Shown: piece by piece, positions 3,977 through 42,696 of the stretch
Numbering within the stretch: the first letter of the stretch is position 1
Layout of the letters: each line of letters begins with the position of its first letter
Source: a virus
Strand: one strand, 5' to 3'
Virus record (IMG/VR): IMGVR_UViG_3300025117_000038
Location: 1 to 64,000 of that record
Length of the DNA: 64,000 bases
Position numbers and translations under genes: made by a program
The notes under the pieces: model-generated
Told to the model about the DNA's origin: nothing
The model's database searches: none
What the model saw: only the letters and a program-made list of their open reading frames with translations

Positions 3977-4180
3977 ATGTTCGCTTTTACGGTAAAAATA
4001 AAGGTCGTTTATAAAGGATGTCCATATGATGTCGGCACGATAGGATATTTTGGTGGGGTTGATTGTACCAATGGAATAGGATATTTCGAAAAACACAAAT
4101 CCCTTCTGAGGAAAAGATATAGACTACCATTTAAGAATGTGGAAATTTTAGGGAGAAATAATGATGAACAAATTTATTGA
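3977..4180 (+). CDS. Small beta-rich hypothetical protein
   Basis: 67 residues; a strand-rich core (FTVKIKVVYKGCPYDVGTIG) resembling a small SH3-like barrel. Abuts the preceding stop and overlaps the sigma-like gene by 20 bases. Confidence 0.5.
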   Translation: MFAFTVKIKVVYKGCPYDVGTIGYFGGVDCTNGIGYFEKHKSLLRKRYRLPFKNVEILGRNNDEQIY

Positions 4181-4661
4181 GTTACAAAATAAAACAATCA
4201 GAATAAGCAGAAGCAAATACTTTTCCAACATTGAGGATATTTTTGATGTTGAGGAAAGGATTCTCAACCGTATTACCAAACTAATAGAAGATGATACCAA
4301 TGGGAATAAATTAGAAGAACGAGACATTAACGTGTGGCAAATAGTGCGGTCTTCAGTGATTGATTCTGACAGAGCAGAAAAAAGGTTTTATAATTATTCT
4401 CAAGAAAAACAATCTCTTCATCAACTTCAAACACCAAAGGATTATACACTATTGTATCAGGCAATTGAAAACTTACCATATAATTATAAAAGAGCCATTG
4501 AACTTAATTTTTTCGATGGTTATCAAATACATGAAATTGCTCAGGTCATGGAATGTTCTTTGGGTACAGCCAGTCGATGGAGAAAAGAAGGCCTAAAAGA
4601 ATTGAAAAAGAAAATAGAAAAAACATCATCCGTATTAAAAGAATTCAGAATAGGAGAATAA
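4161..4661 (+). CDS. Sigma-70-like RNA polymerase factor (first of three)
   Basis: 166 residues. The C-terminal 60 (AIENLPYNYKRAIELNFFDG ... IAQVMECSLGTASRWRKEG) match sigma region 4: a conserved LP-x4-R-x-L helix then a helix-turn-helix with GTASRW in the recognition helix. The N-terminal half is too diverged to identify region 2 confidently. It could be an ECF-type sigma directing host polymerase to phage promoters, or only a region-4 DNA-binding protein. Confidence 0.6.
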   Translation: MMNKFIELQNKTIRISRSKYFSNIEDIFDVEERILNRITKLIEDDTNGNKLEERDINVWQIVRSSVIDSDRAEKRFYNYSQEKQSLHQLQTPKDYTLLYQAIENLPYNYKRAIELNFFDGYQIHEIAQVMECSLGTASRWRKEGLKELKKKIEKTSSVLKEFRIGE

Positions 4662-8188: not shown

Positions 8189-8585
8189 ATTAACCATTAC
8201 TCACAAGATTATCCCTATTATCAATCGTGTAAAGCGAGGGAAGTGGAGAATAAGAGCCAGTACGTTTGCGATTGATAAGTATATAAACAGTATTAAATGT
8301 AATTCTGTTATATCCAAAAAAAACGATTTACAAAACGTAAGTGAGAAAAAAGAAAATTACGATTTACTTAAGTTTTTTGGTACTTACAAACATTGTGCTG
8401 TTTGTGTAGAAATGAGTTTCAATTGTATTGATTGTCCTTTGGGTGATTTTAGGGGCAAGAAGCAGATTCCATGTTTCCATAAAACTCTTTATAAGAGAAT
8501 TGAAAGGTTATTGAAAGACGAGAATCCATCGGTAGTCGAGGATTTGGAAAAATTAAAAGAATGGATGGAAGGAAAGATAAAATGA
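8169..8585 (+). CDS. Cys-rich protein, paralogue of the gene at 7221
   Basis: 138 residues. HCAVC ... NCIDCPLGD ... PCFH reproduces the Cys spacing of the protein at 7221, within a basic N-terminus and helical C-terminus. Probable zinc-binding protein from a local duplication with two small genes in between. Confidence 0.6.
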   Translation: MIEKAIKLTITHKIIPIINRVKRGKWRIRASTFAIDKYINSIKCNSVISKKNDLQNVSEKKENYDLLKFFGTYKHCAVCVEMSFNCIDCPLGDFRGKKQIPCFHKTLYKRIERLLKDENPSVVEDLEKLKEWMEGKIK

Positions 8586-9004
8586 AATATTTTCCAAAAA
8601 GTAAAGCAGGGTATCAGAGGGATAAGTGGTTAAGAATAGCGGAGGCATATTTAACTCCGTTTAGTGAGAGGGACGGGGTACAGAAAGACATTAGTGAAAG
8701 TGGACTATGTTGGGCTGAATTTATATTAAATCATGAACATATTTATATGCAGAGTAATTACTTGTTTTATTTTCATCCATCTTCTCCGGGATTTTCATAT
8801 TGGTGGCCTGTAAGAAAGTATATGGGTACTATCGCATATAGAAATTTCAGTGATAAGGATGGTATAATGGATAGTGAAGGTTGTGCAGTACCTTCTTTGA
8901 AGTTATCCCAAATAGTGATTCAAACAAGGGCTGACGAATTGCGCGGTTTGGTAGCTTGTTTTATAGCAACCATGCCAGAAGACATGAGGAAGGATTTTGA
9001 ATGA
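8582..9004 (+). CDS. Hypothetical protein, last gene of the early plus-strand operon
   Basis: 140 residues. Start at 8582 forms an ATGA overlap with the upstream gene. Rich in aromatic residues (YLFYFHPSSPGFSYWWPV), with a C-terminal helix. Unknown family. Transcription leaves coding sequence here for about 750 bases. Confidence 0.55.
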   Translation: MKYFPKSKAGYQRDKWLRIAEAYLTPFSERDGVQKDISESGLCWAEFILNHEHIYMQSNYLFYFHPSSPGFSYWWPVRKYMGTIAYRNFSDKDGIMDSEGCAVPSLKLSQIVIQTRADELRGLVACFIATMPEDMRKDFE

Positions 9005-9760: not shown

Positions 9761-10144
9761 ATGAGGTATTTTACTGGTGATATGGCAGGTTGTCAATCTT
9801 CGAGAAGGAAGGAATTTAAGGCGGTTTATTATCCCAATAAAGAGATTCCATTTAATGGTAAAGCGTTTGTAAGGTGGTGTGATTATTTTAGGTTGGACTC
9901 ATATGATATTATTAGGGTGGTGTGGAATTTATTGGGGGAGTTTGGTTGCCAATTTTACCGTTATCCATATCAATATTATAATATTGGTAATAATTGTCAG
10001 GGAATGCCTGTAATAAATCCCGATATATGGGAGGGGATAAAAAAATATTATAATAACCCTATATTTATAAAAGAAGATAAAAGGAGTGAGGAGTTTTTAC
10101 AGGCTATACTGTTTTGTCTGTATTCTCAAGGGGCGATAGAATAA
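9761..10144 (+). CDS. Hypothetical protein
   Basis: 127 residues, start preceded by AGAAAGG. Aromatic-rich centre (CQFYRYPYQYYNIGNN) and helical C-terminus. No family recognised. Isolated between repeat arrays, so it may be expressed from its own promoter. Confidence 0.5.
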   Translation: MRYFTGDMAGCQSSRRKEFKAVYYPNKEIPFNGKAFVRWCDYFRLDSYDIIRVVWNLLGEFGCQFYRYPYQYYNIGNNCQGMPVINPDIWEGIKKYYNNPIFIKEDKRSEEFLQAILFCLYSQGAIE

Positions 10145-10173: not shown

Positions 10174-10434
10174 ATGGTGATTAAAGAGAAAGACGATTTG
10201 GAGAAAAGTGAATCAAAACAATTTACCGCAGACAATTTAAGAGAATGGGCCGACTATCTTGACAATCGCACAATAATAAGACCTTCAGGGATTAACCCAG
10301 CCACCGCGCCGGAGACGCTGGAATTATTAAAAGATATTCTCGAATGGGACGGAATATTGCCCCACAGCAAAGAGAGAATCCGTGCCATCATTGCCAGAGC
10401 GGAGAAGGGGAAAAGTATTATATTCAAATCATGA
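10174..10434 (+). CDS. Hypothetical acidic protein
   Basis: 86 residues, helical (FTADNLREWADYLDN; TLELLKDILEW; RIRAIIARAEK). AAAGGAGCT precedes the ATG. Less AT-rich than its upstream neighbour. No recognised domain. Confidence 0.5.
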   Translation: MVIKEKDDLEKSESKQFTADNLREWADYLDNRTIIRPSGINPATAPETLELLKDILEWDGILPHSKERIRAIIARAEKGKSIIFKS

Positions 10435-10465
10435 CAAAATGGCAGTCCGACTGACATGTTGGCAG

Positions 10466-10483
10466 TGTGTCAAATTTGACACA
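10466..10483. promoter_or_regulatory. Operator-like 18-bp palindrome TGTGTCAAATTTGACACA
   Basis: A perfect dyad just after the gene at 10174. A copy with one broken position lies at 11656-11673. Paired dyads of this size usually bind a dimeric repressor. No repressor gene is obvious nearby. Confidence 0.5.
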
Positions 10484-10571
10484 GTTTGTCAAGTTTTCTT
10501 TACATAATGTGCGGTAAACCGAACATAGGTGTCGTGTATTTATAACAAACTGTTGTAAATATACAACAAGG

Positions 10572-10643
10572 TGGGAGAAAGTGGGGAAAAAGGGTAAGTT
10601 ATTGGGTATGAAATGGGTATAAAAGGGGTATAAAGGATACCCA
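10572..10643. repeat. Iteron-like GGGTA(T) direct repeats
   Basis: Four to five G-runs of the form GGGTAA/GGGTAT separated by A-rich spacers, ending in GATACCC. Short direct repeats near a parS-like site and palindromes resemble a plasmid-type origin or partition region. No Rep protein is seen in the window. Confidence 0.4.
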
Positions 10644-10718
10644 TTGCCTCATTACGCATACAACTCCTTAAACGCCAATGACTTACGCCTCCCCACCCTC
10701 TCTCTTTTTGCTCCTAAT

Positions 10719-10744
10719 ATGGATAAATATACCCATTTATCCAT
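10719..10744. repeat. 10-bp inverted repeat with 6-base spacer
   Basis: ATGGATAAAT and ATTTATCCAT flank ATACCC. It lies two bases from the parS-like site and carries the same TACCC core as the upstream iterons. Confidence 0.5.
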
Positions 10745-10746
10745 AA

Positions 10747-10762
10747 TGTTTCACGTGAAACA
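10747..10762. other. Perfect parS-like centromere site
   Basis: TGTTTCACGTGAAACA is identical to the chromosomal ParB-binding parS consensus of many bacteria. It is a fully symmetric 16-mer with the CACGTG centre. ParB binds such sites and spreads, and ParA then segregates the DNA. No parA or parB is visible in this window, so it may recruit host ParB or a partition protein encoded elsewhere in the phage. Confidence 0.75.
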
Positions 10763-10786
10763 TTTTATATATGCAAGTTTTTACAC

Positions 10787-10820
10787 ATACTAAAGAAGTG
10801 ATAACTTCTTTCGTTGTTCA
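10787..10820 (-). repeat. Free-standing copy of the 34-nt tRNA-inserted element
   Basis: Read on the minus strand it begins TGAACAACG and ends TTTAGTAT. It matches 30 of 34 positions of the block in the D-loop of tRNA-Tyr (25667-25700), and the preceding TTAG is shared too. It can form a 7-bp stem AAAGAAG/CTTCTTT; the outermost A-T pair is G-C in the tRNA copy, a paired change. It lies just beyond the minus-strand terminator. Confidence 0.7.
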
Positions 10821-10822
10821 CT

Positions 10823-10853
10823 AAAAAAAATCCCCTGTTTTTGGCAGGGGATT
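10823..10853 (-). terminator. Rho-independent terminator of the minus-strand four-gene operon
   Basis: AATCCCCTG and CAGGGGATT form a 9-bp stem around a 7-base loop (10829-10853). The A run at 10823-10830 is the T tract on the minus strand. It directly follows the last gene of the minus-strand set 11513-10873. Confidence 0.75.
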
Positions 10854-10872
10854 CTTAACGGACGTTGTTATC

Positions 10873-11013
10873 CTATTTAACTTCCCAATCGTCACACTTG
10901 TCTTTAATTTCAATGATTCGATTGTGGAGTTTACAGTAGCCAACACTGACTACCGATAAGCAAAATATACAGTTCTCACACCTTGCGGAATGGGGATGTT
11001 CACGTAAGTTCAT
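10873..11013 (-). CDS. Small Cys-rich protein
   Basis: 46 residues: RCENCIFC, then YC and KCDDWEV, the C..C..C...C...C..W spacing of small phage metal-binding proteins of unknown function. Starts one base after the upstream gene's stop and is the last gene before the terminator. Confidence 0.6.
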   Translation of the reverse strand: MNLREHPHSARCENCIFCLSVVSVGYCKLHNRIIEIKDKCDDWEVK

Positions 11014-12311: not shown

Positions 12312-12887
12312 ATGGATAGCTTAGAGATTATTAAAAACGGCGATTATGTCATAAAAATCGTCCAAGATGATAACCCGGAAAGTCCTAGAGAATATGATAA
12401 TTTAGGTATAATGGCTTGCTTTCATGACCGGTACGTCTTAGGCGATAAAACAGATTTTAGAGATACCGGAGAATTATGCGAATTTATAAAAAAAAATAAG
12501 TCTGTTTATTTGCCTTTATATCTATTTGAACATAGCGGAATAAGTATATCTTGTAACGCTGAACGGTTTCGGGCGGTAGATTCGCAAGGCTGGGATTGGG
12601 GACAAGTCGGGATAATATACGTAACATATGACAAGCTACGTAAAGAGTATAGTCGTAGAAATATCACAAAAAGCTTCATTAAACAAATTAAAAAATATTT
12701 GATTGGTGAAGTCGATATATATGACAAATATATATCCGGCGAATGTTACGGTTATATTGTAGAAGACAAAAGTGGTAATTTTTTAGATTCGTGTTATGGT
12801 TTTTTTGACTTTGATGAATGTATTAGTCAAGCTAACGATTATGTAAAAACGTTGCCGCAACAATTAACCCTTAATATGGAGTATTAA
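12312..12887 (+). CDS. Conserved phage protein (DNPESPRExDNLGxMxCFHxxYxLGDK)
   Basis: 191 residues. The N-terminal DNPESPREYDNLGIMACF and YVLGDK are a signature I recognise from many phage and plasmid hypothetical proteins; function unknown. The centre (GWDWGQVGIIYVTYDKLRKEY) and the acidic C-terminus also fit. First gene of a seven-gene plus operon bounded by a promoter and a terminator. Confidence 0.7.
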   Translation: MDSLEIIKNGDYVIKIVQDDNPESPREYDNLGIMACFHDRYVLGDKTDFRDTGELCEFIKKNKSVYLPLYLFEHSGISISCNAERFRAVDSQGWDWGQVGIIYVTYDKLRKEYSRRNITKSFIKQIKKYLIGEVDIYDKYISGECYGYIVEDKSGNFLDSCYGFFDFDECISQANDYVKTLPQQLTLNMEY

Positions 12888-27273: not shown

Positions 27274-27477
27274 TTATTTCCTTATTATATCCAATTCATC
27301 ACAAAAAATTATTGAAATTGCATTATTAATATCTCCCCCCATCCGAGTATAATCATCACCGCCATCAATAAATAAATTTTTACATTTGCACCATCTAAAA
27401 TCATGTCGGTAAAATGAAAAAATTCTATCGTGACATTTGGGACATTCTATTCCATATTTAATGGGTTTATTTAACAT
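27274..27477 (-). CDS. DUF7695-like zinc-binding protein
   Basis: 67 residues. ECPKCHDRIFS, then RHDFRWCKC and FIDGGDDYTRMGG form a compact conserved pattern seen in many phage and bacterial small proteins with a predicted zinc site (two Cys pairs, one His). Function unknown. Confidence 0.7.
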   Translation of the reverse strand: MLNKPIKYGIECPKCHDRIFSFYRHDFRWCKCKNLFIDGGDDYTRMGGDINNAISIIFCDELDIIRK

Positions 27478-28061
27478 TATTGCCTCAAATCATAAGTATA
27501 AATATGTTTTCCTAAAGTATCTAAATAATATGCAACACCCAATTTAAGCATACTCTTTAGTTTTTCTGCAAATGGTTTTAGTTTCCCTTTATATTTTGTT
27601 CTAATGGCTTTATCGTGAAAAGTTTGTCCATTAAAGCGAATTACTTTTCCTGGTTTTGTCATTCCAAGGTATTTAAAATTAGAGGCCTTATAAATAGTCC
27701 CTACATGACCATAAGTAGCATCAGCATATGAAATAACCATTTTAATGTTCGTGTTTTTTTGGAGCCATTTTAAAGTCTTTCCTATAAAATAACTTTCAGT
27801 ATTTCGCGGGGTATTATCAATACAACATAACCTTCTTAATTCAATTATATCTTCCTGTTTATTAACATATCTTTTCCATACATTAGCCATTGCTATTTTA
27901 CCATATACCATGGCTCCTATTAAAGCATCTCCATCATATAAGCCAAAACAATAATCACTAATAATACCATTCATATTATGGGAATAATGCCACAACTCTA
28001 TAAAATTAGAAATTTCTTTTCTAGTACATGGCTTAACTGTGTATGTCCTAACCTTTCCCAT
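27477..28061 (-). CDS. Mom-like acetyltransferase-fold DNA modification protein
   Basis: 194 residues from MGKVRTYTVKP. The core FGLYDGDALIGAMVYGK, IELRRLCCIDNTPRNTESYF, VISYADATYGHVGTIYKASN and FKYLG match the Mom family (GNAT fold), which adds a carbamoylmethyl-type modification to adenine in phage Mu and protects DNA from restriction. Start at 28061 avoids running into tRNA-Asp. An anti-restriction role is inference. Confidence 0.7.
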   Translation of the reverse strand: MGKVRTYTVKPCTRKEISNFIELWHYSHNMNGIISDYCFGLYDGDALIGAMVYGKIAMANVWKRYVNKQEDIIELRRLCCIDNTPRNTESYFIGKTLKWLQKNTNIKMVISYADATYGHVGTIYKASNFKYLGMTKPGKVIRFNGQTFHDKAIRTKYKGKLKPFAEKLKSMLKLGVAYYLDTLGKHIYTYDLRQ

Positions 28062-28089
28062 AAATACCCTTTTAATAAAAAATTTTAAA

Positions 28090-28156
28090 CGGGAGCAACG
28101 GGATTCGACCCCCTGACGTGACAGGCCAGTGGTTGTATCCATTTAACTATGCCCCC
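28090..28156 (-). tRNA. tRNA-Asp(GUC) lacking a variable loop
   Basis: Acceptor GGGGGCA/TGCTCCC; anticodon arm CTGGC-CTGTCAC-GTCAG; T-loop GTCGAAT. Only 67 nt: the anticodon stem runs straight into the T-arm, so the variable region and one T-stem pair are gone. Probably a deletion derivative with doubtful function. Confidence 0.6.
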
Positions 28157-31320: not shown

Positions 31321-31824
31321 ATGAAGAAAGTGCTTATCATTGCTTTTGTTATGGTTTTAGGCACGATTTTTGCTACAAATTTATATTCTCAGACTAACCC
31401 ATTAGGTAACAGTGCTTTTGCTGGTGGTGGTTACGATAGTAATGCCGGATTTATTTTTAATGCCGGATTGGGTCAAAAAGTTAGTAGTTTTCTGTGGACA
31501 TTTGAAACTTTTGATATTGCCCTTGATAAAGACCTTGGGGCTGATTTGGCGGCTATGACAAGTCTTAATTTTATAGACCCCAAACTGGCTAATTTAAAGG
31601 TTGGTCTATTGGCAAGCCCAGGCGTTAATTGGGTTGCTAACGGGGAAACAGATGAAAATATTGATTATTTAGCTTATTTCCGAGGAGCCGGGGGTATTAT
31701 TGCAATTTATAACTTTACCGAAAGAATCGGTGTTATGGCGTTGAGTAAATATAAATTTGCCCTGAAGGATAATCAATATGAAAAACAATGGGCTGTTAGA
31801 GGAAACTTAGTGGTTAATTTTTAA
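31321..31824 (+). CDS. Exported beta-barrel-like protein
   Basis: 167 residues. Signal peptide MKKVLIIAFVMVLGTIFATN ending near YSQ, then alternating strands with aromatic residues (GGGYDSNAGFIFNAGLG; NIDYLAYFRGAGGIIAIYNF) and a final Phe, the hallmark of outer-membrane barrels. It has its own promoter and strong ribosome site. This suggests a Gram-negative host and a change of the cell surface, perhaps blocking superinfection; that is inference. Confidence 0.6.
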   Translation: MKKVLIIAFVMVLGTIFATNLYSQTNPLGNSAFAGGGYDSNAGFIFNAGLGQKVSSFLWTFETFDIALDKDLGADLAAMTSLNFIDPKLANLKVGLLASPGVNWVANGETDENIDYLAYFRGAGGIIAIYNFTERIGVMALSKYKFALKDNQYEKQWAVRGNLVVNF

Positions 31825-31923
31825 GGGGCTAAATGGTGTCGATTTGGGTGTTGTGACTCTTTGGGAGTTTGCCTGACAAGGCGGTAACACCCGAAGACCT
31901 CGGTTCGATTCCGAGTAGCTCCA
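31825..31923 (+). tRNA. Plus-strand tRNA (Asn-like) with about 30 extra bases in the anticodon loop
   Basis: Begins on the base after the barrel gene's stop. Acceptor GGGGCTA/TAGCTCC, T-arm CTCGG-TTCGATT-CCGAG, discriminator A. The stem GGGTG/CACCC encloses 37 bases starting TTGT and ending TAA; removing 30 would leave TTGTTAA, anticodon GUU (Asn), although other cuts would give GUG or GGU. The D-arm is short and irregular. Identity is provisional. Confidence 0.5.
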
Positions 31924-31930
31924 TTTTATT

Positions 31931-32458: not shown

Positions 32459-32693
32459 AGTACTATATATTACGTTATTCATCATAGTAGTCGTCAAGTC
32501 TCTAAAGAAGTCGTCAAGTCTATGAATATTATTTTCTTAATTTACGTCTTCTTAGAAATTAATATTAATAAAATAATATTCTCGACGACTCCATTTTTTA
32601 GGAACGTTTGATAAAAGGGAAGAACAAAATTAACATTCTGTTGTTAGTTGAGTAATTAGTAGAAATTTTGCAAACATGAGGAAGGGAAGTTTT

Positions 32694-33434
32694 ATGTTAC
32701 CACCTATCAGCATTATTATGCCAGTATATAATCAACGTAAACATCTTCTTGAGGTTGCCGCGCGGTCGGCTATCAATCAGATTGGGGTCGAGGGTGAACT
32801 TATTATTATTAACGATGGTTCTACAGACAATTGCATGGAAGTCCTTAATTTTGTACCATCGAGCAGTAATATAGAAATAAAAGTTATAAGTAGAGTTGAA
32901 AATGGTGGTGTTGCCGCCGCATTAAACGATGGGATTAAGGCTTCTCAAAATGAATATATTGCATGGTTGCCTTCCGATGATTATTTTATGCCTGAAAAAA
33001 CATTGGTTCAATTATCTAATATGATAGAAGCAAAAACTTTGTTTTCTTTTACTGCCTTCCATCAACTGGTTTGGGAAAATGGAGTTCTTACTGAAGTTCA
33101 GGCAGTTCCCACCCCCTACCCATCGGGAAAAATTGGGGCAGTCCAGTTACATCAAGCATTATTAAATCGATTTCCTTCGTGTTTTCTTAACGGGGCATCA
33201 ATTATGGTACATAAAGAAGTTTTTAATAAGGTTGGTTTGTTTGATGAGGATTTAAAATATACCCAGGATTACGATATGTGGTTAAAAATAACGGAATATT
33301 ATGACACTTTTGTTAATGCTGACGCTTTAATGGTCAAAAATATCCACGACAATCAGATGGAATTTATCTTTAAAAATAAGACCGAACAAAGAGCAATAGA
33401 AGAGGGGATTTTAAAAAAGAGGTATTTATCTTAA
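32694..33434 (+). CDS. Family 2 glycosyltransferase
   Basis: 246 residues. PPISIIMPVYNQ and ELIIINDGSTDNC, then GGVAAALNDGIK and IAWLPSDDYF (the DxD-type metal site as SDD) define a GT-A family 2 enzyme. Start at 32694 chosen since AGGAAGGG lies upstream. First gene of the glycan island; its stop overlaps the next ATG. Confidence 0.85.
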   Translation: MLPPISIIMPVYNQRKHLLEVAARSAINQIGVEGELIIINDGSTDNCMEVLNFVPSSSNIEIKVISRVENGGVAAALNDGIKASQNEYIAWLPSDDYFMPEKTLVQLSNMIEAKTLFSFTAFHQLVWENGVLTEVQAVPTPYPSGKIGAVQLHQALLNRFPSCFLNGASIMVHKEVFNKVGLFDEDLKYTQDYDMWLKITEYYDTFVNADALMVKNIHDNQMEFIFKNKTEQRAIEEGILKKRYLS

Positions 33435-34399
33435 TGAATGTTGCTTTTATTTCCGATAAAGATGGAGGAGGAACCTTGGGGCATTATTCTTCCTTGATTA
33501 ACAAGTTTACTTCTCATCATAGCGACTGTATTGTTAATTACAATCCGTATCAATTTAAAGTAGATTATGAGAGTAGGGACTCAGATAACGGCAAAATAGG
33601 TACAATATGTCGGTATATTTTAACAAATGCTGACATTTTGGTTTTTAACAATGGCTATGAATCGGTTGATTTCGCACAACGGGCATTTGAGTGGAAATTT
33701 GATGTCACTCAAAAAAACTTTTTCTTTTATGGTGATATAAATTACTTTGAGGAAAAAAGAAAATATAACCTAAAAGTTCCCGTCCTTACTACTCAATACA
33801 TTATTAAGAATTTCTTTGATACATATGTTTACGAGGCAGACAAAACTATTTATATTCCAATTGCTATTGATACTGGTTCCGCTAATTATAATAACAAAAT
33901 AAAATATGCCAATAAAATTGGTATTGTTCATGCTCCCGCAAGTCGTCAGAATAAAAATACCGAAGGATTTCTTTCAGTTAATTCATATGTAGAAATGTTT
34001 TTTGATAGTGCAACTTTTGATATTATAGAAAATGTTTCTTGGAAAAAGTCTTTATCAGATAAAAAAAAATATCAAATCGGAGTTGACCATATTAATCCCA
34101 ATTATGGGTATTATGGCATAAGTTCACTGGAAAATTCCGCCATTGGATTATTTAATTGTGTTAATCTCCCAATAGACGAGGCAATTTATTTATGTAGTAT
34201 GGTTGAATGTGATATTATGCCATGGGCATTTACATCTGATGAAGGAGCTTTATATGAAGTTGTTGGTGCATATATTAAGAGTCCCGAAAGCCTTTTTCAA
34301 GACAGGGTAAGAACGAAGAAATGGTTTGATGAATCATGGGATGGCAAAAAAATTATCAATAAAGTAATGCAAGCTATGGAGGAAAGATGTACGATTTAG
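33434..34399 (+). CDS. GT-B type glycosyltransferase
   Basis: 321 residues. Rossmann-like start MNVAFISDKDGGGTLGHY, a central IGIVHAPASRQNKNTEG at the domain junction, and a C-terminal YGISSLENSAIGLFNCVNLP region. Same layout as the protein at 34755 (IVHSPTDRRVKNTSEF; YYSLSSVENGCLGLINVV), so the two are paralogues. Sugar and acceptor unknown. Confidence 0.65.
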   Translation: MNVAFISDKDGGGTLGHYSSLINKFTSHHSDCIVNYNPYQFKVDYESRDSDNGKIGTICRYILTNADILVFNNGYESVDFAQRAFEWKFDVTQKNFFFYGDINYFEEKRKYNLKVPVLTTQYIIKNFFDTYVYEADKTIYIPIAIDTGSANYNNKIKYANKIGIVHAPASRQNKNTEGFLSVNSYVEMFFDSATFDIIENVSWKKSLSDKKKYQIGVDHINPNYGYYGISSLENSAIGLFNCVNLPIDEAIYLCSMVECDIMPWAFTSDEGALYEVVGAYIKSPESLFQDRVRTKKWFDESWDGKKIINKVMQAMEERCTI

Positions 34400-34758
34400 A
34401 CCCCGATGGAGATTTTGGTTTTAATAAATATCAACAAAAGGCTCATGAAACTGCTGAGTATCCAAATATATATGTTGGGGGACATCCTTCTAATTATATT
34501 TATGCTGCCATGGGATTAGCGGGAGAGTCAGGTGAACTAATTGAAAAATTAAAAAAGGTTGTTCGTAACAAGAATGGTCTTGTTGCGGAGTCTGATTTAT
34601 TTGATATTAAAAAAGAGGTTGGGGATGTTTTGTGGTATCTGTCTGAATTATGTACCTGTCTTAATCTTAGTCTGAAACAAATAGCAAGAGAAAACATTAA
34701 AAAGTTATCTGATAGAAAAAACAGGGGTGTTATCAAATCGGAAGGGGATAATAGATGA
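34387..34758 (+). CDS. MazG-like nucleotide pyrophosphohydrolase
   Basis: 123 residues. GLAGESGELIEKLKK gives E-x-x-E and KKEVGDVLWYLSEL gives E-x-x-D, the four metal ligands of all-alpha NTP pyrophosphatases. Phage MazG proteins hydrolyse NTPs or ppGpp-like alarmones. It is embedded between two glycosyltransferase genes and overlaps both. Confidence 0.8.
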   Translation: MYDLDPDGDFGFNKYQQKAHETAEYPNIYVGGHPSNYIYAAMGLAGESGELIEKLKKVVRNKNGLVAESDLFDIKKEVGDVLWYLSELCTCLNLSLKQIARENIKKLSDRKNRGVIKSEGDNR

Positions 34759-35777
34759 ATATACTTTGGGTAGGAGCAGTCGATGCAAGTGGAGCCTGTA
34801 TGGCTTACTGCAATGCTATCAATAAAGGTGGTGAACATAATTGCCGTTTAGTGACTCAATTCGAAACAAGGGGATTTGATAGCGATATTGTTATACAAAG
34901 AGATATGTGGTCGATTCCCGATGGGAGAACAAAAGAGGATAAAATAGAGGAATTTAAAAGTTTGGTTGAAAAGGCTGATGTAGTTATTTTTAACGCTGCT
35001 CTTTTCCCTGGTATTGGGTCTTCCTATTCCCAGGTTGTATCAGATACATATGAAATGCAATGGTACGGTATCAATTGGTATGATTATATTGATAAAAAGA
35101 AATTTTTTGTATTTTTTTCTGGTTCTTGTTCTTTAAGGGGAAATTATCAGTATTATATAGATTTGCACACTAAATATAATATTCCTATTATTACATGTCA
35201 GACAGATGTATATAAAAATATTAAAAATTTAGCCGAAAATATTACCTATCTTCCAAACTTGATTAATAATAATCATCCTCGCTATTTAAGAACTCCTTCT
35301 TATGAAGAAAAAATTCATATCGTACATTCTCCCACTGACAGAAGAGTAAAAAACACCAGTGAATTCACGAGGGTTTGTCGTAGATTAAAGAGGGAGTTCG
35401 ATTACTTAGATTTTTCTCTTATTGAAAATAAAGGCTATAATGAATCTATTGTTATTAAGCAAAATAGTCAAATAGGTTTTGACCATATGCAGGGATATTA
35501 TAGTTTGTCTTCTGTGGAAAATGGTTGTTTGGGATTGATTAATGTGGTGGGGTTATCTGAATGGGGCATTGAATTTATTGAGGATAGTATCGGGGGAGGC
35601 TCTCTTCCTTGGGTTACCCCAAGAAATGAAGAAGAACTTTATGCAAATATAAAATATTTAGTTGAAGATAGAGAAAGGTTATACCAATTAAGACTACAAT
35701 CGTATAATTGGCATCACAAATATTGGAGAGATGATATTCATATTAAAAAGTTAATTAATGTTCTGGGGGGGAAATGA
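34755..35777 (+). CDS. GT-B type glycosyltransferase, paralogue of 33434
   Basis: 340 residues. MNILWVGAVDASGACMAYCN start, IHIVHSPTDRRVKNTSEF linker, and SLSSVENGCLGLINVVGLSE near the nucleotide-sugar site. A C-terminal helix bundle follows. ATGA overlaps on both sides. Confidence 0.65.
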   Translation: MNILWVGAVDASGACMAYCNAINKGGEHNCRLVTQFETRGFDSDIVIQRDMWSIPDGRTKEDKIEEFKSLVEKADVVIFNAALFPGIGSSYSQVVSDTYEMQWYGINWYDYIDKKKFFVFFSGSCSLRGNYQYYIDLHTKYNIPIITCQTDVYKNIKNLAENITYLPNLINNNHPRYLRTPSYEEKIHIVHSPTDRRVKNTSEFTRVCRRLKREFDYLDFSLIENKGYNESIVIKQNSQIGFDHMQGYYSLSSVENGCLGLINVVGLSEWGIEFIEDSIGGGSLPWVTPRNEEELYANIKYLVEDRERLYQLRLQSYNWHHKYWRDDIHIKKLINVLGGK

Positions 35778-36583
35778 AAGTTATAGGTATAGCACAAGTT
35801 TATAATGAAGCTATTAATTTAGAAAGATTTCTTAAATATTATAAAGAAATTTGCGATGATATTATCTTACTCGATGATGCTTCTACTGATAATACAGTTG
35901 AAATAGCAAAAAAATATACCGATAATGTTATTTCAAATAAAGAAAATAGATGGAAACATCAAATGGAAACTTTTAATAAAGATTTCTTATTGCAAGAAGC
36001 CAAAAAAATGGGGGCAGAATGGGTTGTAAATTTTGATGCTGATGAAATTTTTGAAGCACAGTTTAACAGAGAAAAATTAGATAAGGCAATTGATTGGGCG
36101 GAGTTTTCAATAAAAAGAGGAATTCCTACTTATTCATATGGAGCAGCGTGGATTAATTTGTGGTTGTCGGAAGCCTATTTTAGAGTTGATGGAGGGCTTA
36201 CTATGGTTTCTCCTCCAAGAATATATAAGGTTTTAAGCGATGCCAAAATAGAAACTGTTGGAGGATTACATAGAAGGTTGTGGCCTTCATATGCGGACAA
36301 TCCATATCAATTACCATTTAACTTATTACACTATAGTTCAGCTTCTCTGCCGGGAGTTATTTATAAAATTACTCGTTATTATAAGTTGGGTAAAAAATTT
36401 CCCAATATTGAGATGGCCAAACAGCACTATATTTATAATTTATTAAAAGGAACGCAGATTGCAAAAGTCCCCCCCCTGTGGTTCCCCAATGAACTAAGAC
36501 CAATATATAGTCCCATTAATTTAAGTGCTCTTCATAATGAAATATCTAACGCTATTGAATATATGATGGAGAATGAAAAATGA
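35774..36583 (+). CDS. Family 2-like glycosyltransferase
   Basis: 269 residues. IGIAQVYNEAINLERFLKYY, DDIILLDDASTDNTVEIAKK and WVVNFDADEIFE (DxD motif) fit the GT2 branch that includes LPS-core type enzymes. Coupled to both neighbours. Confidence 0.8.
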   Translation: MKVIGIAQVYNEAINLERFLKYYKEICDDIILLDDASTDNTVEIAKKYTDNVISNKENRWKHQMETFNKDFLLQEAKKMGAEWVVNFDADEIFEAQFNREKLDKAIDWAEFSIKRGIPTYSYGAAWINLWLSEAYFRVDGGLTMVSPPRIYKVLSDAKIETVGGLHRRLWPSYADNPYQLPFNLLHYSSASLPGVIYKITRYYKLGKKFPNIEMAKQHYIYNLLKGTQIAKVPPLWFPNELRPIYSPINLSALHNEISNAIEYMMENEK

Positions 36584-37671
36584 AAATACTTTTAGACAGT
36601 ATGTCAAGACGATTCGGGGATACCTTAACTGCTCTTCCTTTTACTTCTTTATTTAGAGAGAAATTTGGCAAAGATGTTCATATAACATTTGGAAGTAGTC
36701 CATATGAATCAGATATTGAGTTTTATCGACATATTTCGACTATTGATGATGTTGTTTTAGGAACTCTATATAATCCCTCTGGGCGTGGATACGATATGTC
36801 TTTTGATATAATTTTAAGAACATCTTTTGATGTTGATGTAAAATTTTCACCACATAAAATTTTTGGAGAACTAGATACAAAAGAGGGATGGGACATATGT
36901 ATGAAAAATTACCCTATAAAATTTTTATATTACAACAAATCACACAAATTTCCTAAAACAAAAAAAAGAATTGGTCTGTTCGTTAATTTTCCTAGAAAAG
37001 ATATTTCTATCCCAGTTGAAATTGGAGTTTATCCCGTTAACCTATGGCAACAACTTATTAATATTCTTAATAAAAAATATCACGTTTATGTTTTTACTGG
37101 GATGATGGAACCAGACTATAACTTCGACAATTGCCATAATCTTGGAAAACTAAAAGCCTGTGACGAATTAAGTGTTACTTCAAATATGGATATCGTAATC
37201 GGAACATCTTGTGGTTTTATGGATATGGTAGCAACTTTCGCAGATATTCCCAAAATAGTTTTAAGTAGTTGTGAAGAAGATGAAACATGTGTTTGGTCTG
37301 GAATACCCGATAAGTGTACCTTACCACAAAATAGATATAATTATTTTATTTCACCGAGGGATGATATGTATAGTTTTATTAAGCCATCGAAGGGAGCCAG
37401 ATTAGTTGAATGGTATTATCAACATCTTCTAAAAAAAATGCCATTGATTAGAAATATGAGAAGTTTAAGTGGAATTGACCCATTAATCATATCAGAACAT
37501 ATTGACTATCTTTTAAGTGGTGGAAAATCCGTAGAATGGTTTGTAGAAGGACATGTTTGTGATACATGTAAACTAAAAAAAGACTTTAATCAGTGTTCAT
37601 ATGTTTATAAGCCCTCTTTAAAGGATGGAAGTTATTATAAAGGAAATTGGGATGGATATAACACAAGATAA
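36580..37671 (+). CDS. Heptosyltransferase-like (GT9) protein
   Basis: 363 residues. MKILLDSMSRRFGDTLTALP corresponds to the GT9 N-terminal R-x-GD motif; KRIGLFVNFPRKD starts the second domain, and DIVIGTSCGFMDMVATFADI is the donor-site loop. The extra C-terminal CDTCKLKKDFNQC is unusual for the family and may bind metal. Confidence 0.65.
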   Translation: MKILLDSMSRRFGDTLTALPFTSLFREKFGKDVHITFGSSPYESDIEFYRHISTIDDVVLGTLYNPSGRGYDMSFDIILRTSFDVDVKFSPHKIFGELDTKEGWDICMKNYPIKFLYYNKSHKFPKTKKRIGLFVNFPRKDISIPVEIGVYPVNLWQQLINILNKKYHVYVFTGMMEPDYNFDNCHNLGKLKACDELSVTSNMDIVIGTSCGFMDMVATFADIPKIVLSSCEEDETCVWSGIPDKCTLPQNRYNYFISPRDDMYSFIKPSKGARLVEWYYQHLLKKMPLIRNMRSLSGIDPLIISEHIDYLLSGGKSVEWFVEGHVCDTCKLKKDFNQCSYVYKPSLKDGSYYKGNWDGYNTR

Positions 37672-37777
37672 AAATAGTTTAGAGATAATAATCACTGAGT
37701 TAAAACAGAAGATAGGTGATTTAGAAAAGAGAATAGAAAAAATAGAGTATTTTTTTAAGGGTCCAAAATCATGTTAA
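37652..37777 (+). CDS. 41-residue coiled-coil protein
   Basis: AAGGAAATTGGG precedes the ATG. Heptad-like ITELKQKIGDLEKRIEKIEY. Overlaps both the previous and the next gene. Confidence 0.5.
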   Translation: MDITQDKNSLEIIITELKQKIGDLEKRIEKIEYFFKGPKSC

Positions 37778-38724
37778 CCCACATTTTTATTATTACAATA
37801 TGTTCATATTTAATAACCCTATTGGAAAGAAGAGCGACATGGGATATTGGCCATCAGGCAATTGGGATTGGGGCTGTTAATAGAGTGGTAAATAATGAAG
37901 CGGGTATGCCTACTCAACATCGTCCATTGTCGTATTTACTTATGCATATTTTGAGATTAAATACTATAGATTGGCAAATGGGAGTCGTCTATCTTCCTCA
38001 TAGGAAAATTCACATTCATATAAAAGCAGATACAATAAATCAATACTATATCTTAAAATTTTTTCTAATATTGGGTTCATCATTGACCTTTTACTGGTAT
38101 CTGTGGATACTGTGTTTTAACCCATTGGTGGGGTCATTATTGTTTCTTTTGTTTGTATCGTTTGGGTTTATGTTTGATTATATAGACTGTTATCTTGATA
38201 TTATTTTTATTGGATTAGTTTTAATTGGAATTTTAAGTAATTTCCCTATGTGGATAATTGGCCTTGTGATTTTGATGGGGTCATTAAATAGAGAAACGAT
38301 TGTTGTTGTTGTTCCATTTGTTTTTTATTACTATGGATTACCCTATGGTATTGCTTTAACAGGAACATTTTTGCTTGGGAGATTTTTAATAAAAAAGATG
38401 TATCCACGGAAATATAAAATCAGTTTCGTTGGATGGGATGTTTATAGGGATATAAAAAATATTTATAAAGGAATAAATTCTCCAAAAGAAACTTTTATAA
38501 ATGAAGTTTGGGGAGGGGTTGTTTTTGTATTACTTTACATCTCTTTATTTTTTATAAATGAGAAATTTACAATAATGCCTATAGAAATACGCAATATCAT
38601 ATCCGTTGGATATATAATTTTTGGTATTTTCATAATTTTAATATCAATTCCCGGTGACATCAGAGAAATAAGAATATATTACCCAACTTTATATGTTGTT
38701 ATACCACTATTAATGTCTTTATAA
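37771..38724 (+). CDS. Polytopic membrane protein in the glycan island
   Basis: 317 residues with about eight hydrophobic segments (for example FLILGSSLTFYWYLWILCF; IIFIGLVLIGILSNF; WIIGLVILMGSLNRE). Resembles GT-C or flippase-like membrane proteins in layout. A membrane-embedded sugar transferase is plausible from context, not proven. Confidence 0.5.
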   Translation: MLTHIFIITICSYLITLLERRATWDIGHQAIGIGAVNRVVNNEAGMPTQHRPLSYLLMHILRLNTIDWQMGVVYLPHRKIHIHIKADTINQYYILKFFLILGSSLTFYWYLWILCFNPLVGSLLFLLFVSFGFMFDYIDCYLDIIFIGLVLIGILSNFPMWIIGLVILMGSLNRETIVVVVPFVFYYYGLPYGIALTGTFLLGRFLIKKMYPRKYKISFVGWDVYRDIKNIYKGINSPKETFINEVWGGVVFVLLYISLFFINEKFTIMPIEIRNIISVGYIIFGIFIILISIPGDIREIRIYYPTLYVVIPLLMSL

Positions 38725-38734
38725 TGGAGGAAAG

Positions 38735-38971
38735 ATGCAAACAATAGGAGAATTAATAGATAAATTGACAATAGCGAATATTCGGCTATGGCATCTGGAG
38801 GATATACGTAGAAACAAAAATTTGACAAATGATGAAAGGTTAAAGGCGTGTGATTCTGTTTCTGTTGTTAATAAGCAAAGAAATAATTTGATTGATGAGA
38901 TAGACAAATGTATTGACGATGCTATCCATAATGGAGAAGCACCAGTTTTTTTGAAGAATAAACTTTATTGA
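38735..38971 (+). CDS. Small helical protein found with glycosyltransferases
   Basis: 78 residues. TIGELIDKLTIANIRLWHLE, then VVNKQRNNLIDEIDKC, a pattern recalling short proteins in surface-sugar gene clusters. Biochemical role unknown. GGAGGAAAG precedes the ATG. Confidence 0.6.
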   Translation: MQTIGELIDKLTIANIRLWHLEDIRRNKNLTNDERLKACDSVSVVNKQRNNLIDEIDKCIDDAIHNGEAPVFLKNKLY

Positions 38972-38981
38972 AAGGAAAGTA

Positions 38982-39932
38982 ATGGCTAATATTGTTGTAA
39001 CAGGAGCGTTGGGGACTTTGGGTTCACCGTTGGTTAGAAAACTTGTTGAAGATGGGCATAATGTTTATAGTATAGACCTTATGCATAGTGGTAGACCAAA
39101 TTATATTAGAGCCGATGTTGGTGATTTTAGAGAAATTTCGAATGCTTTTATGGCGATAGAAAGTTCTCTTGTAAAACAGGGAAAGGGACATATAGATTTT
39201 GTCTATCATCTGGCGGCTGAATTTGGTCGTATCAATGGAGAGATGTATTATAATAAAGTATGGGAAACAAATGTCATAGGAACTAAAAATATTCTTGAAC
39301 TACAAAAGTTTGGGCTTTTTGATAAACTTATTTTTGCGAGTTCCAGTGAGGTTTATGGGGAAACGGAAGTTAATCCCATTAACGAAAGCTCTTTTGGCAA
39401 TCCATTAGTAGTTCCACATAACGACTACGCTATTTCAAAAGCAGTTAACGAGATGCAAATTATAAACCATCGTAAACGTAATGAGTTGCCAGTAATGACA
39501 ATCAGACTCTTCAATGCTTATGGGCCGGGAGAACATTACCATCCATTTAGAAGTGTTGTTTGTCTGTTTTGTTATTATGCGTTGAATGGACTTCCTTATA
39601 ATGTTTATGAAGGTTATCATAGGGTTTTTATGTATGTTGACGACTTGATTCCCACCTTAGCCAGATGTGCTGGACTATTTTCAGATGGACTTACTATTAA
39701 TATTGGTGGTGAGGAATATCGTTCCGTAAAAGAAATGAGTGATATTGTTCTTAAGACTATCGGTATCGATGATTCTAAGGTTAACTATCTTCCTCTTGAT
39801 AAGCACAATACCGTTAACAAAAGGCCCGACATAACACTTGCTAAAGAAATTTTAAAGCACAACCCCTCTACCACTCTTGAAGAAGGTATTCCAAAGACTA
39901 TCGAGTGGATGAAACGTGTTTACAACATATAG
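38982..39932 (+). CDS. NAD-dependent nucleotide-sugar epimerase/dehydratase
   Basis: 316 residues. VTGALGTLGSPLVRKL is the GxxGxxG Rossmann motif; HLAAEFGR, FASSSEVYGE and NDYAISKAVNE give the catalytic Ser/Tyr-x3-Lys set; RLFNAYGPGEHYHPFRSVV is typical of extended SDR sugar enzymes. Makes or converts an activated sugar for the island's transferases. Confidence 0.85.
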   Translation: MANIVVTGALGTLGSPLVRKLVEDGHNVYSIDLMHSGRPNYIRADVGDFREISNAFMAIESSLVKQGKGHIDFVYHLAAEFGRINGEMYYNKVWETNVIGTKNILELQKFGLFDKLIFASSSEVYGETEVNPINESSFGNPLVVPHNDYAISKAVNEMQIINHRKRNELPVMTIRLFNAYGPGEHYHPFRSVVCLFCYYALNGLPYNVYEGYHRVFMYVDDLIPTLARCAGLFSDGLTINIGGEEYRSVKEMSDIVLKTIGIDDSKVNYLPLDKHNTVNKRPDITLAKEILKHNPSTTLEEGIPKTIEWMKRVYNI

Positions 39933-39938
39933 GTAAAT

Positions 39939-41033
39939 ATGAAGAGAGTATGTTTAATAATCGGAGCGAGGCCAAACTTTGTTAAAGCGGCCTCGCTTTA
40001 TAAAGCATTTCAGGAGTATCCCGAAATAAAATTAACAATTGTTCATACTGGGCAACATTATACTGAAGTTTTGTCAGATGATATTATAAATCAAATTGGA
40101 CTTAAGGTTGATGTTAATTTGAATGTTTATTCATCTCTGTATTCCGATTTAATAACTGCAATTGATAAGTATTTATCTAAAAACGAGTTTGACATGATGA
40201 TTATTTTGGGTGATGTTAATTCTTCTTTTGCAGGAGCATACGTAGCTAAAAACAGGGGAATTCCATTGGCTCATGTAGAATCTGGATTACGTTCTGGTTT
40301 ATGGTATATGCCTGAAGAATTAAATAGGTTTCTTATAGATGCACTATCTGATTATTTATTTTTTACAAATGTAAGTGCGATGGGAAATGTTTCTGACGAA
40401 TTTGTTGACAAGAAAAAATTCTTAGTTGGTAATATTATGATAGACACATTAGTAGCGATGGAATCGTATATAAAAGAATCGGAATATAATGGGGAAGATT
40501 ACGCAATAGCTACTTTCCATAGGAAGGAAAATATCAGTACGAAGGAATCTATATTAGAGATATTAGACTTATTGAAAAGTATAAAAAAAATAATTCCTGT
40601 AAAATTTTATGTTCATCCACATTTTACTGTTAATATGTCAAGGTTTTTAACATCAACAGAACTAGAATATTATAGAGATGGCAACTTAATGGAATCTATG
40701 TATTCTCCGATTTCATATTTGGACTTTATTAAAGAACTCCATCATTCAAAATTTGTTATTACGGATTCGGGAGGAGTACAAGAAGAGTCATGTATTATGA
40801 ATAAACCCTGTCTTGTCTATAGGAAAAATACAGATAGACCTATTACAATTTTACTTTCTGGAACCGTTGTTACTCAGAATTTTGAAAAAATCATTGAATT
40901 TGCAAAAAAACAAAATAATATTCCAATCAATAAGAGCTGGGATAGCAAAGCCAAAAATCATATGTGGGGAGATGGTCAGGCAGGAAAAAGAATAGCAAAA
41001 ATTATTAACGATATACTAAAGGAAGGGAAATGA
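39939..41033 (+). CDS. wecB: UDP-N-acetylglucosamine 2-epimerase
   Basis: 364 residues. IIGARPNFVKAASLYKA, VHTGQHY, GDVNSSFAGAYVAKNRGIPL, HVESGLRSG, PEELNRFLIDALSDYLFF and ITDSGGVQEES are the hallmark motifs of the WecB/MnaA fold. Produces UDP-ManNAc or a related sugar. Full length for the family. Confidence 0.9.
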   Translation: MKRVCLIIGARPNFVKAASLYKAFQEYPEIKLTIVHTGQHYTEVLSDDIINQIGLKVDVNLNVYSSLYSDLITAIDKYLSKNEFDMMIILGDVNSSFAGAYVAKNRGIPLAHVESGLRSGLWYMPEELNRFLIDALSDYLFFTNVSAMGNVSDEFVDKKKFLVGNIMIDTLVAMESYIKESEYNGEDYAIATFHRKENISTKESILEILDLLKSIKKIIPVKFYVHPHFTVNMSRFLTSTELEYYRDGNLMESMYSPISYLDFIKELHHSKFVITDSGGVQEESCIMNKPCLVYRKNTDRPITILLSGTVVTQNFEKIIEFAKKQNNIPINKSWDSKAKNHMWGDGQAGKRIAKIINDILKEGK

Positions 41034-42004
41034 ATAAAAAAAGAATTACATTTTTATGTCCTAAGAGTCAGGACTCATTTTTATTGCCGATTATTGAGTA
41101 TTTCACTAAACATAATGAATATAAGGCGATTCATTATCATGGGGGTGACGACCAAGATTTCTATAAAACACTTCAGAGTTCTGATATTGCATGGTATGAA
41201 TGGGCCAATCAAGATGTTGTTAATATTAGTAGAGGACCGAGATATAGTAAGCAAATATGCCGATTACATAGTTACGAATTCTTTGAAGGACTACATTTAC
41301 AAATTAACTGGAATAAATTTGATAGACTTGTTGTTGTTAACGATAGCTTAAAGGAACTTATTTTGGGGGGTATTCAAAATATGATTCCTCCATTAAAAAT
41401 TTCTCCTGATTTTATAGAAGTTATTCCAAATGGGGTGGATGTTAGTAAATTTAATTTTAATGAAAATAAAACATATAACAAGAAAATAGCCTTTATCGGA
41501 TTTGTTAATCATAAAAAATCACCCGACTTGTTAATCCAATGTTTTAATGCTATCCATAAACTTGACCCTGAATTTACATTTCATATGGCAGGTTTATACC
41601 AAGACCCAAGAACTCTTCTAACTTTTAGATATCTTGAAAAGTATCTTGATTTTCCTATTAATTACGATGGATACATTGAAGATGTTAATGATTATTTCGC
41701 TGATAAAGATTATGTTATATCAACATCTTCATTTGAATCGTTCCATTATTCTATTGCCGAGGGCATGGCTTCAGGATGTTTTCCATTGGTCTATAATTGG
41801 TTTGGTTCGGATAATATTTACCCAAGGGAGAATATTTTCACAACAACTAATCAATTGGTTTCTATTGTTGAAAAAATAAATAACAGTAATCCAAATGAAA
41901 TTATGGAACAAAGAAACAAGGCAAGAAAATATATTGTTGATAATTTTTCACTTGACGGCCAACTAAAAGATATAGAAAGATTATTTAAAAATATTTTGGA
42001 GTAA
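41030..42004 (+). CDS. Family 4 glycosyltransferase
   Basis: 324 residues. RLHSYEFFEG and DRLVVVNDSL in the acceptor domain, VIPNGVDVSKFNF at the junction, KKIAFIGFVNHKKSPDLLI opening the donor domain, and STSSFESFHYSIAEGMASG as the E-x7-E motif. A typical GT-B retaining transferase. Confidence 0.85.
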   Translation: MNKKRITFLCPKSQDSFLLPIIEYFTKHNEYKAIHYHGGDDQDFYKTLQSSDIAWYEWANQDVVNISRGPRYSKQICRLHSYEFFEGLHLQINWNKFDRLVVVNDSLKELILGGIQNMIPPLKISPDFIEVIPNGVDVSKFNFNENKTYNKKIAFIGFVNHKKSPDLLIQCFNAIHKLDPEFTFHMAGLYQDPRTLLTFRYLEKYLDFPINYDGYIEDVNDYFADKDYVISTSSFESFHYSIAEGMASGCFPLVYNWFGSDNIYPRENIFTTTNQLVSIVEKINNSNPNEIMEQRNKARKYIVDNFSLDGQLKDIERLFKNILE

Positions 42005-42006
42005 AA

Positions 42007-42696
42007 ATGAAAATAGCAATAGTAGGAAGCGTATATAAAGATATCAACATTTTTAATAAAATTATTTTAGAAACAGATTGCGATGCTGTTTTATGTACAG
42101 GCAATGTTGGTATTAAAAATCATATATTGGCTCCATATATAAGTGGAGAAAAGGTTTTTAAGAAATTCATTTATGTTGTTCCTGGAATTATCGAAGATTT
42201 TAATCTTGTTGATAGTATAGTTAATCGAGAGATTGTTATTCCCAATTTTTTCATATTCAAACAGGGTCAAAAAATAGACATATCTCATAATGGAGAAACA
42301 GTTGGAGTTACTGGATTTGGGAAAGGGTTTAGTCCTGTAAGTTATACGAAAGATATATTAGAGGGGAAAAGAATTCGACATTTTAACAAAACAGAAATGG
42401 AAGAACTTAAAAGAAATCTTGCGACAAATATTATTTTAATGCACGAACTTCCAAACCAATGGCTTGGTAATAGTATGAATTTTTCCGATGATACTTTTGT
42501 TTTGTTACAAAATACCCTGGCTCTTTATCTTTTTTGTGGAAAGTATGAAAAATGGTTGTTATATAGACATAAAAATGGGATAAATCATTCAACCTATTTA
42601 ACCTTTTTGCCAAAAGCTAATTCCGATTATGGGATTCTCGATACAAAGAAGTGGAGTTTTAGCAGTATTAGTATAGTAAAAAACGAGGGAGCATGA
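42007..42696 (+). CDS. Metallophosphoesterase-like protein with altered metal sites
   Basis: 229 residues. IAIVGSVYKDINIFNKII, DAVLCTGNVG and FIYVVPGIIEDF follow the order of calcineurin-like phosphoesterases, but the expected D-x-H, GD and GNHE ligands read VYKD, GN and GIIE. A later IILMHELP keeps one His. Probably a catalytically dead relative, possibly a sugar or nucleotide sensor. Confidence 0.45.
   Translation: MKIAIVGSVYKDINIFNKIILETDCDAVLCTGNVGIKNHILAPYISGEKVFKKFIYVVPGIIEDFNLVDSIVNREIVIPNFFIFKQGQKIDISHNGETVGVTGFGKGFSPVSYTKDILEGKRIRHFNKTEMEELKRNLATNIILMHELPNQWLGNSMNFSDDTFVLLQNTLALYLFCGKYEKWLLYRHKNGINHSTYLTFLPKANSDYGILDTKKWSFSSISIVKNEGA

What the first reader, a model, noticed from the sequence alone, without database searches (positions are those of the whole stretch)
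10747..10762. Perfect chromosomal-type parS site in a phage
TGTTTCACGTGAAACA equals the widely conserved ParB site. A perfect 16-mer is very unlikely by chance in 64 kb of AT-rich DNA. The phage may be maintained as a plasmid-like element, hijack host ParB, or titrate it.
Basis: partly seen in the sequence, partly recalled or inferred. Interest (0 to 1): 0.75.

Follow-up and report, generated by a model that had tools for sequence, protein, structure and literature searches.

The report
Orphan chromosome-type parS in a phage
A 117-kb bacterial virus in which no ParA or ParB gene could be detected carries one perfect copy of the bacterial chromosome's centromere site, probably so that the host's own segregation machinery handles the viral DNA; phage phi29 is reported to do this, and the site turns up in many other phages here.

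Summary
TGTTTCACGTGAAACA lies at 10747-10762, the core of a perfect 20-bp palindrome. It is the only copy in the whole 117,395-bp virus record, where about 1e-5 copies are expected. The record's ends overlap, so the genome is probably complete. It has no detectable ParB_N, HTH_ParB, ParA-type ATPase or integrase family. The site is non-coding, between convergent gene ends, in the densest cluster of inverted repeats in the genome.

The wider survey is the strongest evidence. The same 16-mer occurs in at least 120 IMG/VR stretches, against 5 and 0 for two shuffled palindromes, and in 315 records of the GenBank phage collection, against 0 for three controls. Most parS phages checked lack ParB. 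Phage phi29, reported to use host ParB (Spo0J) to enter spores, carries four one-mismatch copies. Best reading: an orphan parS that recruits host ParB, most likely for genome positioning or segregation during a slow or carrier infection.

Weak points: two genome-scale relatives lack the site, the host is unknown, no ParB binding was tested, and only one copy is present. This is a new member of a known kind, within a pattern across phages that I did not find described.

The parts
10747..10762 (.). parS-type 16-mer TGTTTCACGTGAAACA (core of the perfect 20-bp palindrome 10745-10764)
   Evidence: Markov expectation about 1e-5 per record
10435..10872 (.). non-coding stretch between convergent gene ends that holds the site; 4 of the 29 perfect inverted repeats (9-bp arms or longer, loop 8 or less) of the whole record lie at 10466-10853
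10718..10745 (.). inverted repeat TATGGATAAAT-6 nt-ATTTATCCATA abutting parS
   Evidence: (I8)
10603..10645 (+). iteron-like repeats (two TGGGTATRAAA units and a third related unit at 11-bp steps, then inverted ATACCCATT; another inverted copy at 10729-10737); the full 11-mer occurs nowhere else in the record
   Evidence: function not known
10466..10483 (.). second perfect palindrome TGTGTCAAATTTGACACA
10789..10814 (.). inverted repeat (11-nt arms) between parS and the terminator-like hairpin
   Evidence: I13; hairpins in series, DNA folding z -7.4
10826..10856 (-). terminator-like hairpin (AAAAATCCCCTG/CAGGGGATTCTT followed by a T-run on the - strand) of the minus-strand genes
   Evidence: the consensus terminator scan did not list it, so this is read from the sequence
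10174..10434 (+). last + strand gene before the site, 86 aa, no PHROG or Pfam match
10873..11013 (-). small ORF (46 aa, Cys-rich) ending toward the site

Best explanation
The site is an orphan centromere that depends on a host protein. Host chromosomal ParB loads at the phage's parS, spreads as a CTP-dependent clamp over the neighbouring DNA, and brings host ParA and probably SMC to the viral genome. The phage gains positioning and segregation of its own DNA, most usefully when replication and lysis are slow or suspended (carrier state, starvation or, if the host sporulates, entry into the spore). Shown here: the exact site, its non-coding setting, the absence of detectable phage ParA, ParB and integrase families, and the very strong excess of this site in phages over control palindromes. 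Known from the literature for other elements: phi29 with Spo0J, and SGI1 with the IncC ParB. Inferred: that this phage's host has a canonical ParB, that it binds, and that the outcome is segregation.
For: Exact 16-mer, single copy, about 1e-5 expected. Non-coding and in the densest inverted-repeat cluster of the genome. No ParB_N, HTH_ParB, AAA_31 ParA, tyrosine or serine recombinase in a record whose ends overlap. Viral contigs: at least 120 stretches versus 5 and 0 for same-composition palindromes; 75 of 146 sites genic versus 90% for random positions. GenBank phages: 315 records versus 0, 0, 0. 15 of 16 sampled parS phages and 24 of 28 long IMG/VR contigs with parS have no ParB_N match; some have clusters, such as 4 sites in 1 kb in vB_BcoS-136, 3 in Bromius and 6 in a 6.2-kb inovirus. 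phi29 has four TGTTTCACGTGGAACA sites, and its spore entrapment by Spo0J is described, citing Meijer 2005, in PMC9437464. SGI1 carries parS mimics bound by another replicon's ParB (PMC10954446).
Against: Not conserved: two genome-scale relatives (111 kb and 103 kb, terminase 44-45% identical) have no site at up to 2 mismatches, and the 58-kb closest relative has none at up to 3; the site lies in a region with almost no counterpart in them. Only one site. Host unknown. Spo0A boxes occur at chance level, so the phi29 sporulation logic is not indicated. No binding or segregation data.
Confidence: 0.55

Rival explanations
1. Local ParB effects other than segregation: host ParB bound at the site spreads and silences or insulates neighbouring phage genes, or loads SMC to compact phage DNA, as a host-state sensor.
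For: The relation between ParB binding and expression near parS sites has been studied and found in some species (reviewed in PMC7022226). The site sits between convergent units with a terminator-like hairpin.
Against: Gene ends, not promoters, face the site; no strong promoter overlaps it. In B. subtilis, loss of Spo0J is reported in the same review not to affect expression near the sites.
Confidence: 0.15
2. Decoy or inhibition: the phage site draws ParB (and SMC) away from the host chromosome to disturb host segregation.
For: Multiplied phage genomes would supply many sites per cell; SGI1 destabilises its helper plasmid in this way (PMC10954446).
Against: Only one site per genome; a decoy would be expected to carry arrays. 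ParB loss is mild in many hosts (own knowledge).
Confidence: 0.1
3. The palindrome is an operator or structural element for a phage-encoded protein, or one of the stacked hairpins, and matches parS incidentally.
For: Several other palindromes and iteron-like repeats lie within 400 bp.
Against: A random 16-bp palindrome would be parS only about once in 1e5 (own estimate from base composition). The same exact sequence recurs in unrelated phages while control palindromes do not.
Confidence: 0.08
4. Chance match or neutral relic of captured host DNA, with no function.
For: Absent from relatives; many windows are read in such scans, so a 1e-5 event can surface.
Against: Chance rate in the same collection is at most about 5 per at least 120 hits, and lower for non-coding sites. 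The flanks match no plasmid record or phage record; bacterial chromosomes were not searched with the flanks.
Confidence: 0.12

Closest known systems
phi29 parS sites and Spo0J-dependent spore entrapment (Meijer et al. 2005, read here only through PMC9437464)
   Same: Virulent-type phage without ParAB carrying chromosomal-type parS; relies on host ParB. In this survey phi29 has four one-mismatch sites.
   Different: phi29 has four sites and its Spo0A-box control couples it to sporulation; this phage is 117 kb, has one perfect site and Spo0A boxes only at chance level, and its host is unknown.
SGI1 parS-like sites hijacking IncC ParABS (PMC10954446)
   Same: Parasitic element with parS mimics that gains stability from another replicon's ParB.
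   Different: Uses a plasmid ParB and plasmid parS, in an integrative mobilizable element.
Phage-plasmids such as P1, or ParB-only Lacachita-type phages (PMC10286716)
   Same: Phage genomes thought to use ParB-parS for inheritance.
   Different: They encode their own ParB (and mostly ParA); none was detected here.
Chromosomal parS (Livny et al. 2007 consensus)
   Same: Identical 16-mer.
   Different: On chromosomes usually several sites near oriC, with parAB encoded in cis.

Membership tests
Chromosomal-type parS site | Exact or near match to TGTTTCACGTGAAACA | tested here: met
   0 mismatches
Chromosomal-type parS site | Bound by a ParB of the cell | not testable with these tools
   needs a binding assay; host unknown
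Self-encoded ParABS (phage-plasmid type) | ParB gene in the genome | tested here: not met
   PF02195 and PF17762 absent from the record
Self-encoded ParABS (phage-plasmid type) | ParA-type ATPase gene in the genome | tested here: not met
   PF13614 absent; other partition NTPases (ParM, TubZ) were not searched genome-wide
phi29-type host-ParB hijack | parS without phage ParB | tested here: met
phi29-type host-ParB hijack | Coupling to sporulation by Spo0A boxes | tested here: not met
   TGTCGAA 6 and TTCGACA 7 against 7.7 and 8.2 expected
phi29-type host-ParB hijack | Host ParB needed for phage DNA inheritance | not testable with these tools
   needs infection of parB mutants
phi29-type host-ParB hijack | Site kept in related phages | tested here: not met
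   absent from two genome-scale relatives and the 58-kb relative; close relatives of this exact phage were not available

The most novel reading that the evidence does not exclude
Orphan chromosomal parS sites are a widespread, repeatedly acquired trait of phages: tailed, filamentous and microviruses, in hosts such as Listeria, Lactobacillus, Enterococcus and actinobacteria where phi29-type endospore entrapment cannot apply. They would let non-integrating phages ride the host ParB-SMC system, and this 117-kb phage would be one more independent case.
Probability: 0.4. Interest if true: 0.8.

Novelty: new member of a known kind. Interest (0 to 1): 0.6.

Why it matters
If host ParB handles this DNA, a phage with no detectable lysogeny or partition genes could still be inherited by daughter cells through a single 16-bp site, so lifestyle prediction from gene content would miss it. 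The survey gives a ready list of cultured phages (A511/P100, Bromius, vB_BcoS-136, Orchid, Huntingdon) and filamentous genomes with up to six sites in which the question can be tested now.

Tried and rejected
Relatives by neighbouring proteins (RtcB, 9761-10144, 12312-12887) in viral contigs: none confirmed. DNA similarity of the region to phages and plasmids: none. Host assignment through a terminase relative in bacterial genomes gave only a 30% match in an archaeal MAG, so the host stays open; Gram-positive is a guess from ribosome-binding-site usage (51 of 82 ORFs), G+C and distant Bacillus phage terminases. Sporulation coupling: Spo0A boxes at chance level. A 49-aa TTG ORF runs through the site (10644-10793) but has no ribosome-binding site in view and was taken as noise. 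The uniqueness of CACGTG in the record is not remarkable in itself (1 against 2.3 expected). The Meijer 2005 full text is not in the library. One of the three GenBank controls was 17 bp with a central base, not a strict permutation. Limits of the survey: some of the 315 records, especially the unannotated 'Listeria phage LM 4-11-1 / 4-14-1' contigs, look like bacterial contamination, and many are near-duplicates, so 315 is not a count of independent events; some IMG/VR contigs may include host DNA.

Full report
OBSERVATION. The 16-mer TGTTTCACGTGAAACA is present without mismatch at 10747-10762, is unique in the window and in the whole 117,395-bp record, and is the core of a perfect 20-bp palindrome. 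It holds the only CACGTG of the record; the maximal-order expectation for CACGTG is 2.3, so that uniqueness alone is not remarkable. The whole 16-mer is expected 3e-5 to 8e-6 times per record.

THE GENOME. The last 126 or so bases of the record repeat those near its start, so it is probably a complete, circularly closing assembly. It encodes terminase, portal and capsid proteins, DnaE-type DNA polymerase, primase, DnaB-type helicase and two clamp-loader-like proteins, a B12-dependent ribonucleotide reductase, RtcB, RNA ligase, and twelve or more tRNAs. Searches of the whole record for ParB_N, HTH_ParB, AAA_31 ParA, tyrosine integrase and serine resolvase were empty, while the named control genomes rang. 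It therefore looks like a non-integrating phage that makes its own replication machinery, without a ParABS of its own. Not every protein was annotated, and actin- or tubulin-type partition proteins were not searched genome-wide.

LOCAL ANATOMY. The site lies in a non-coding stretch between the end of a + strand gene (10434) and small - strand genes running toward it (from 11013 down). Around it are an abutting inverted repeat (10718-10745), a second palindrome (10466-10483), an iteron-like array with 11-bp steps (10603-10645) whose full unit occurs nowhere else in the record, another hairpin and a terminator-like hairpin. Of 29 perfect inverted repeats in the record, four lie in these 390 bp. 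This looks like a cis-acting control or origin-like region, but nothing here shows an origin.

IS parS IN PHAGES MORE THAN CHANCE? A palindrome with the same bases and the same CACGTG core gave 5; another gave 0. In the GenBank phage collection the parS query hit 315 records and three control queries none. In the 120 IMG/VR loci, 51% of sites are genic against 90% for random positions; among long contigs without ParB_N, 18 of 31 sites (58%) against 86%. Sixteen phage records were examined: in most the sites are intergenic, 15 have no ParB_N, and several carry clusters. Of 28 long parS-bearing viral contigs, 24 lack a ParB_N match. Redundancy and bacterial contamination inflate these counts, but not the contrast with the controls.

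PRECEDENT. phi29 surfaced in the similarity query with the site and its flanks and has four TGTTTCACGTGGAACA sites. PMC9437464 states that phi29 DNA is entrapped in the spore by Spo0J, citing Meijer et al. 2005. SGI1 shows experimentally that parS mimics can stabilise an element by another replicon's ParB (PMC10954446). Ten library searches found no general description of orphan parS sites in phages (last one); the library holds open-licence papers only, so this is weak evidence of novelty.

CONSERVATION. The closest relative found (65% terminase, 58-kb fragment) covers mainly the structural and sugar-gene part and has no site at up to 3 mismatches. Two relatives of 111 and 103 kb, both with overlapping or repeated ends, share most structural and replication genes but have no site and no ParB_N. 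Apart from one weak match to 8561-9004, nothing between 1 and 26 kb of the window has a counterpart in these two, so the site belongs to the accessory part. It is not a core trait of the group.

MECHANISM AND VERDICT. I think it most likely (0.55) that host ParB loads at the site and the phage genome is positioned or segregated by host ParA and SMC, with a benefit in slow, suspended or carrier infections. That the site is selected to meet host ParB in some way, whatever the consequence, I would put near 0.8 (the sum of the segregation, local-effect and decoy readings). The single site, the unknown host, the absence from relatives and the missing binding test keep it from being higher. As an instance it is a new member of a known kind; as part of the pattern across phages it is more interesting.

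Noticed in passing
whole record (window 1-64000 and L122-L124): GATC is completely absent from 117 kb (0 against 346 expected from trinucleotides) and CTAG is rare (33 against 167), while three relatives carry 183 to 251 GATC; strong avoidance of a GATC restriction system is likely.
   Followed up: partly
window 27477-28142 (-): Mom-family protein (Pfam 3.7e-40), i.e. a likely DNA-modification enzyme; the record also has a dcm-type cytosine methylase and an N6/N4 methylase.
   Followed up: no
window 31825-31926 (+): Rfam tmRNA match just above the gathering score (49.8 against 47 bits) over only 102 nt, right after ORF 31321-31824; ARAGORN did not report it.
   Followed up: no
window 42850-45798 (+) and L123:16341-19922 (-): Ribonucleotide reductase and DNA polymerase genes contain intein N-terminal and HNH endonuclease regions.
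   Followed up: no
window 32676-42696 (+): Cluster of glycosyltransferases, an NAD-dependent epimerase and a WecB-like UDP-GlcNAc 2-epimerase, conserved in order with the 58-kb relative.
   Followed up: no
window 4161-4661 (+): Short sigma-70 region 4 protein resembling ECF sigma factors, in the accessory region near the site.
   Followed up: no
L145 (PQ006097.1, 6183 bp): A filamentous (inovirus) genome carries six perfect parS sites in 6.2 kb and no ParB_N, a striking density that deserves its own study.
   Followed up: partly
L139 (MH884508.1 29256-30261): Bacillus cohnii phage vB_BcoS-136 has four perfect parS sites within about 1 kb, all intergenic by its annotation, without ParB_N.
   Followed up: partly
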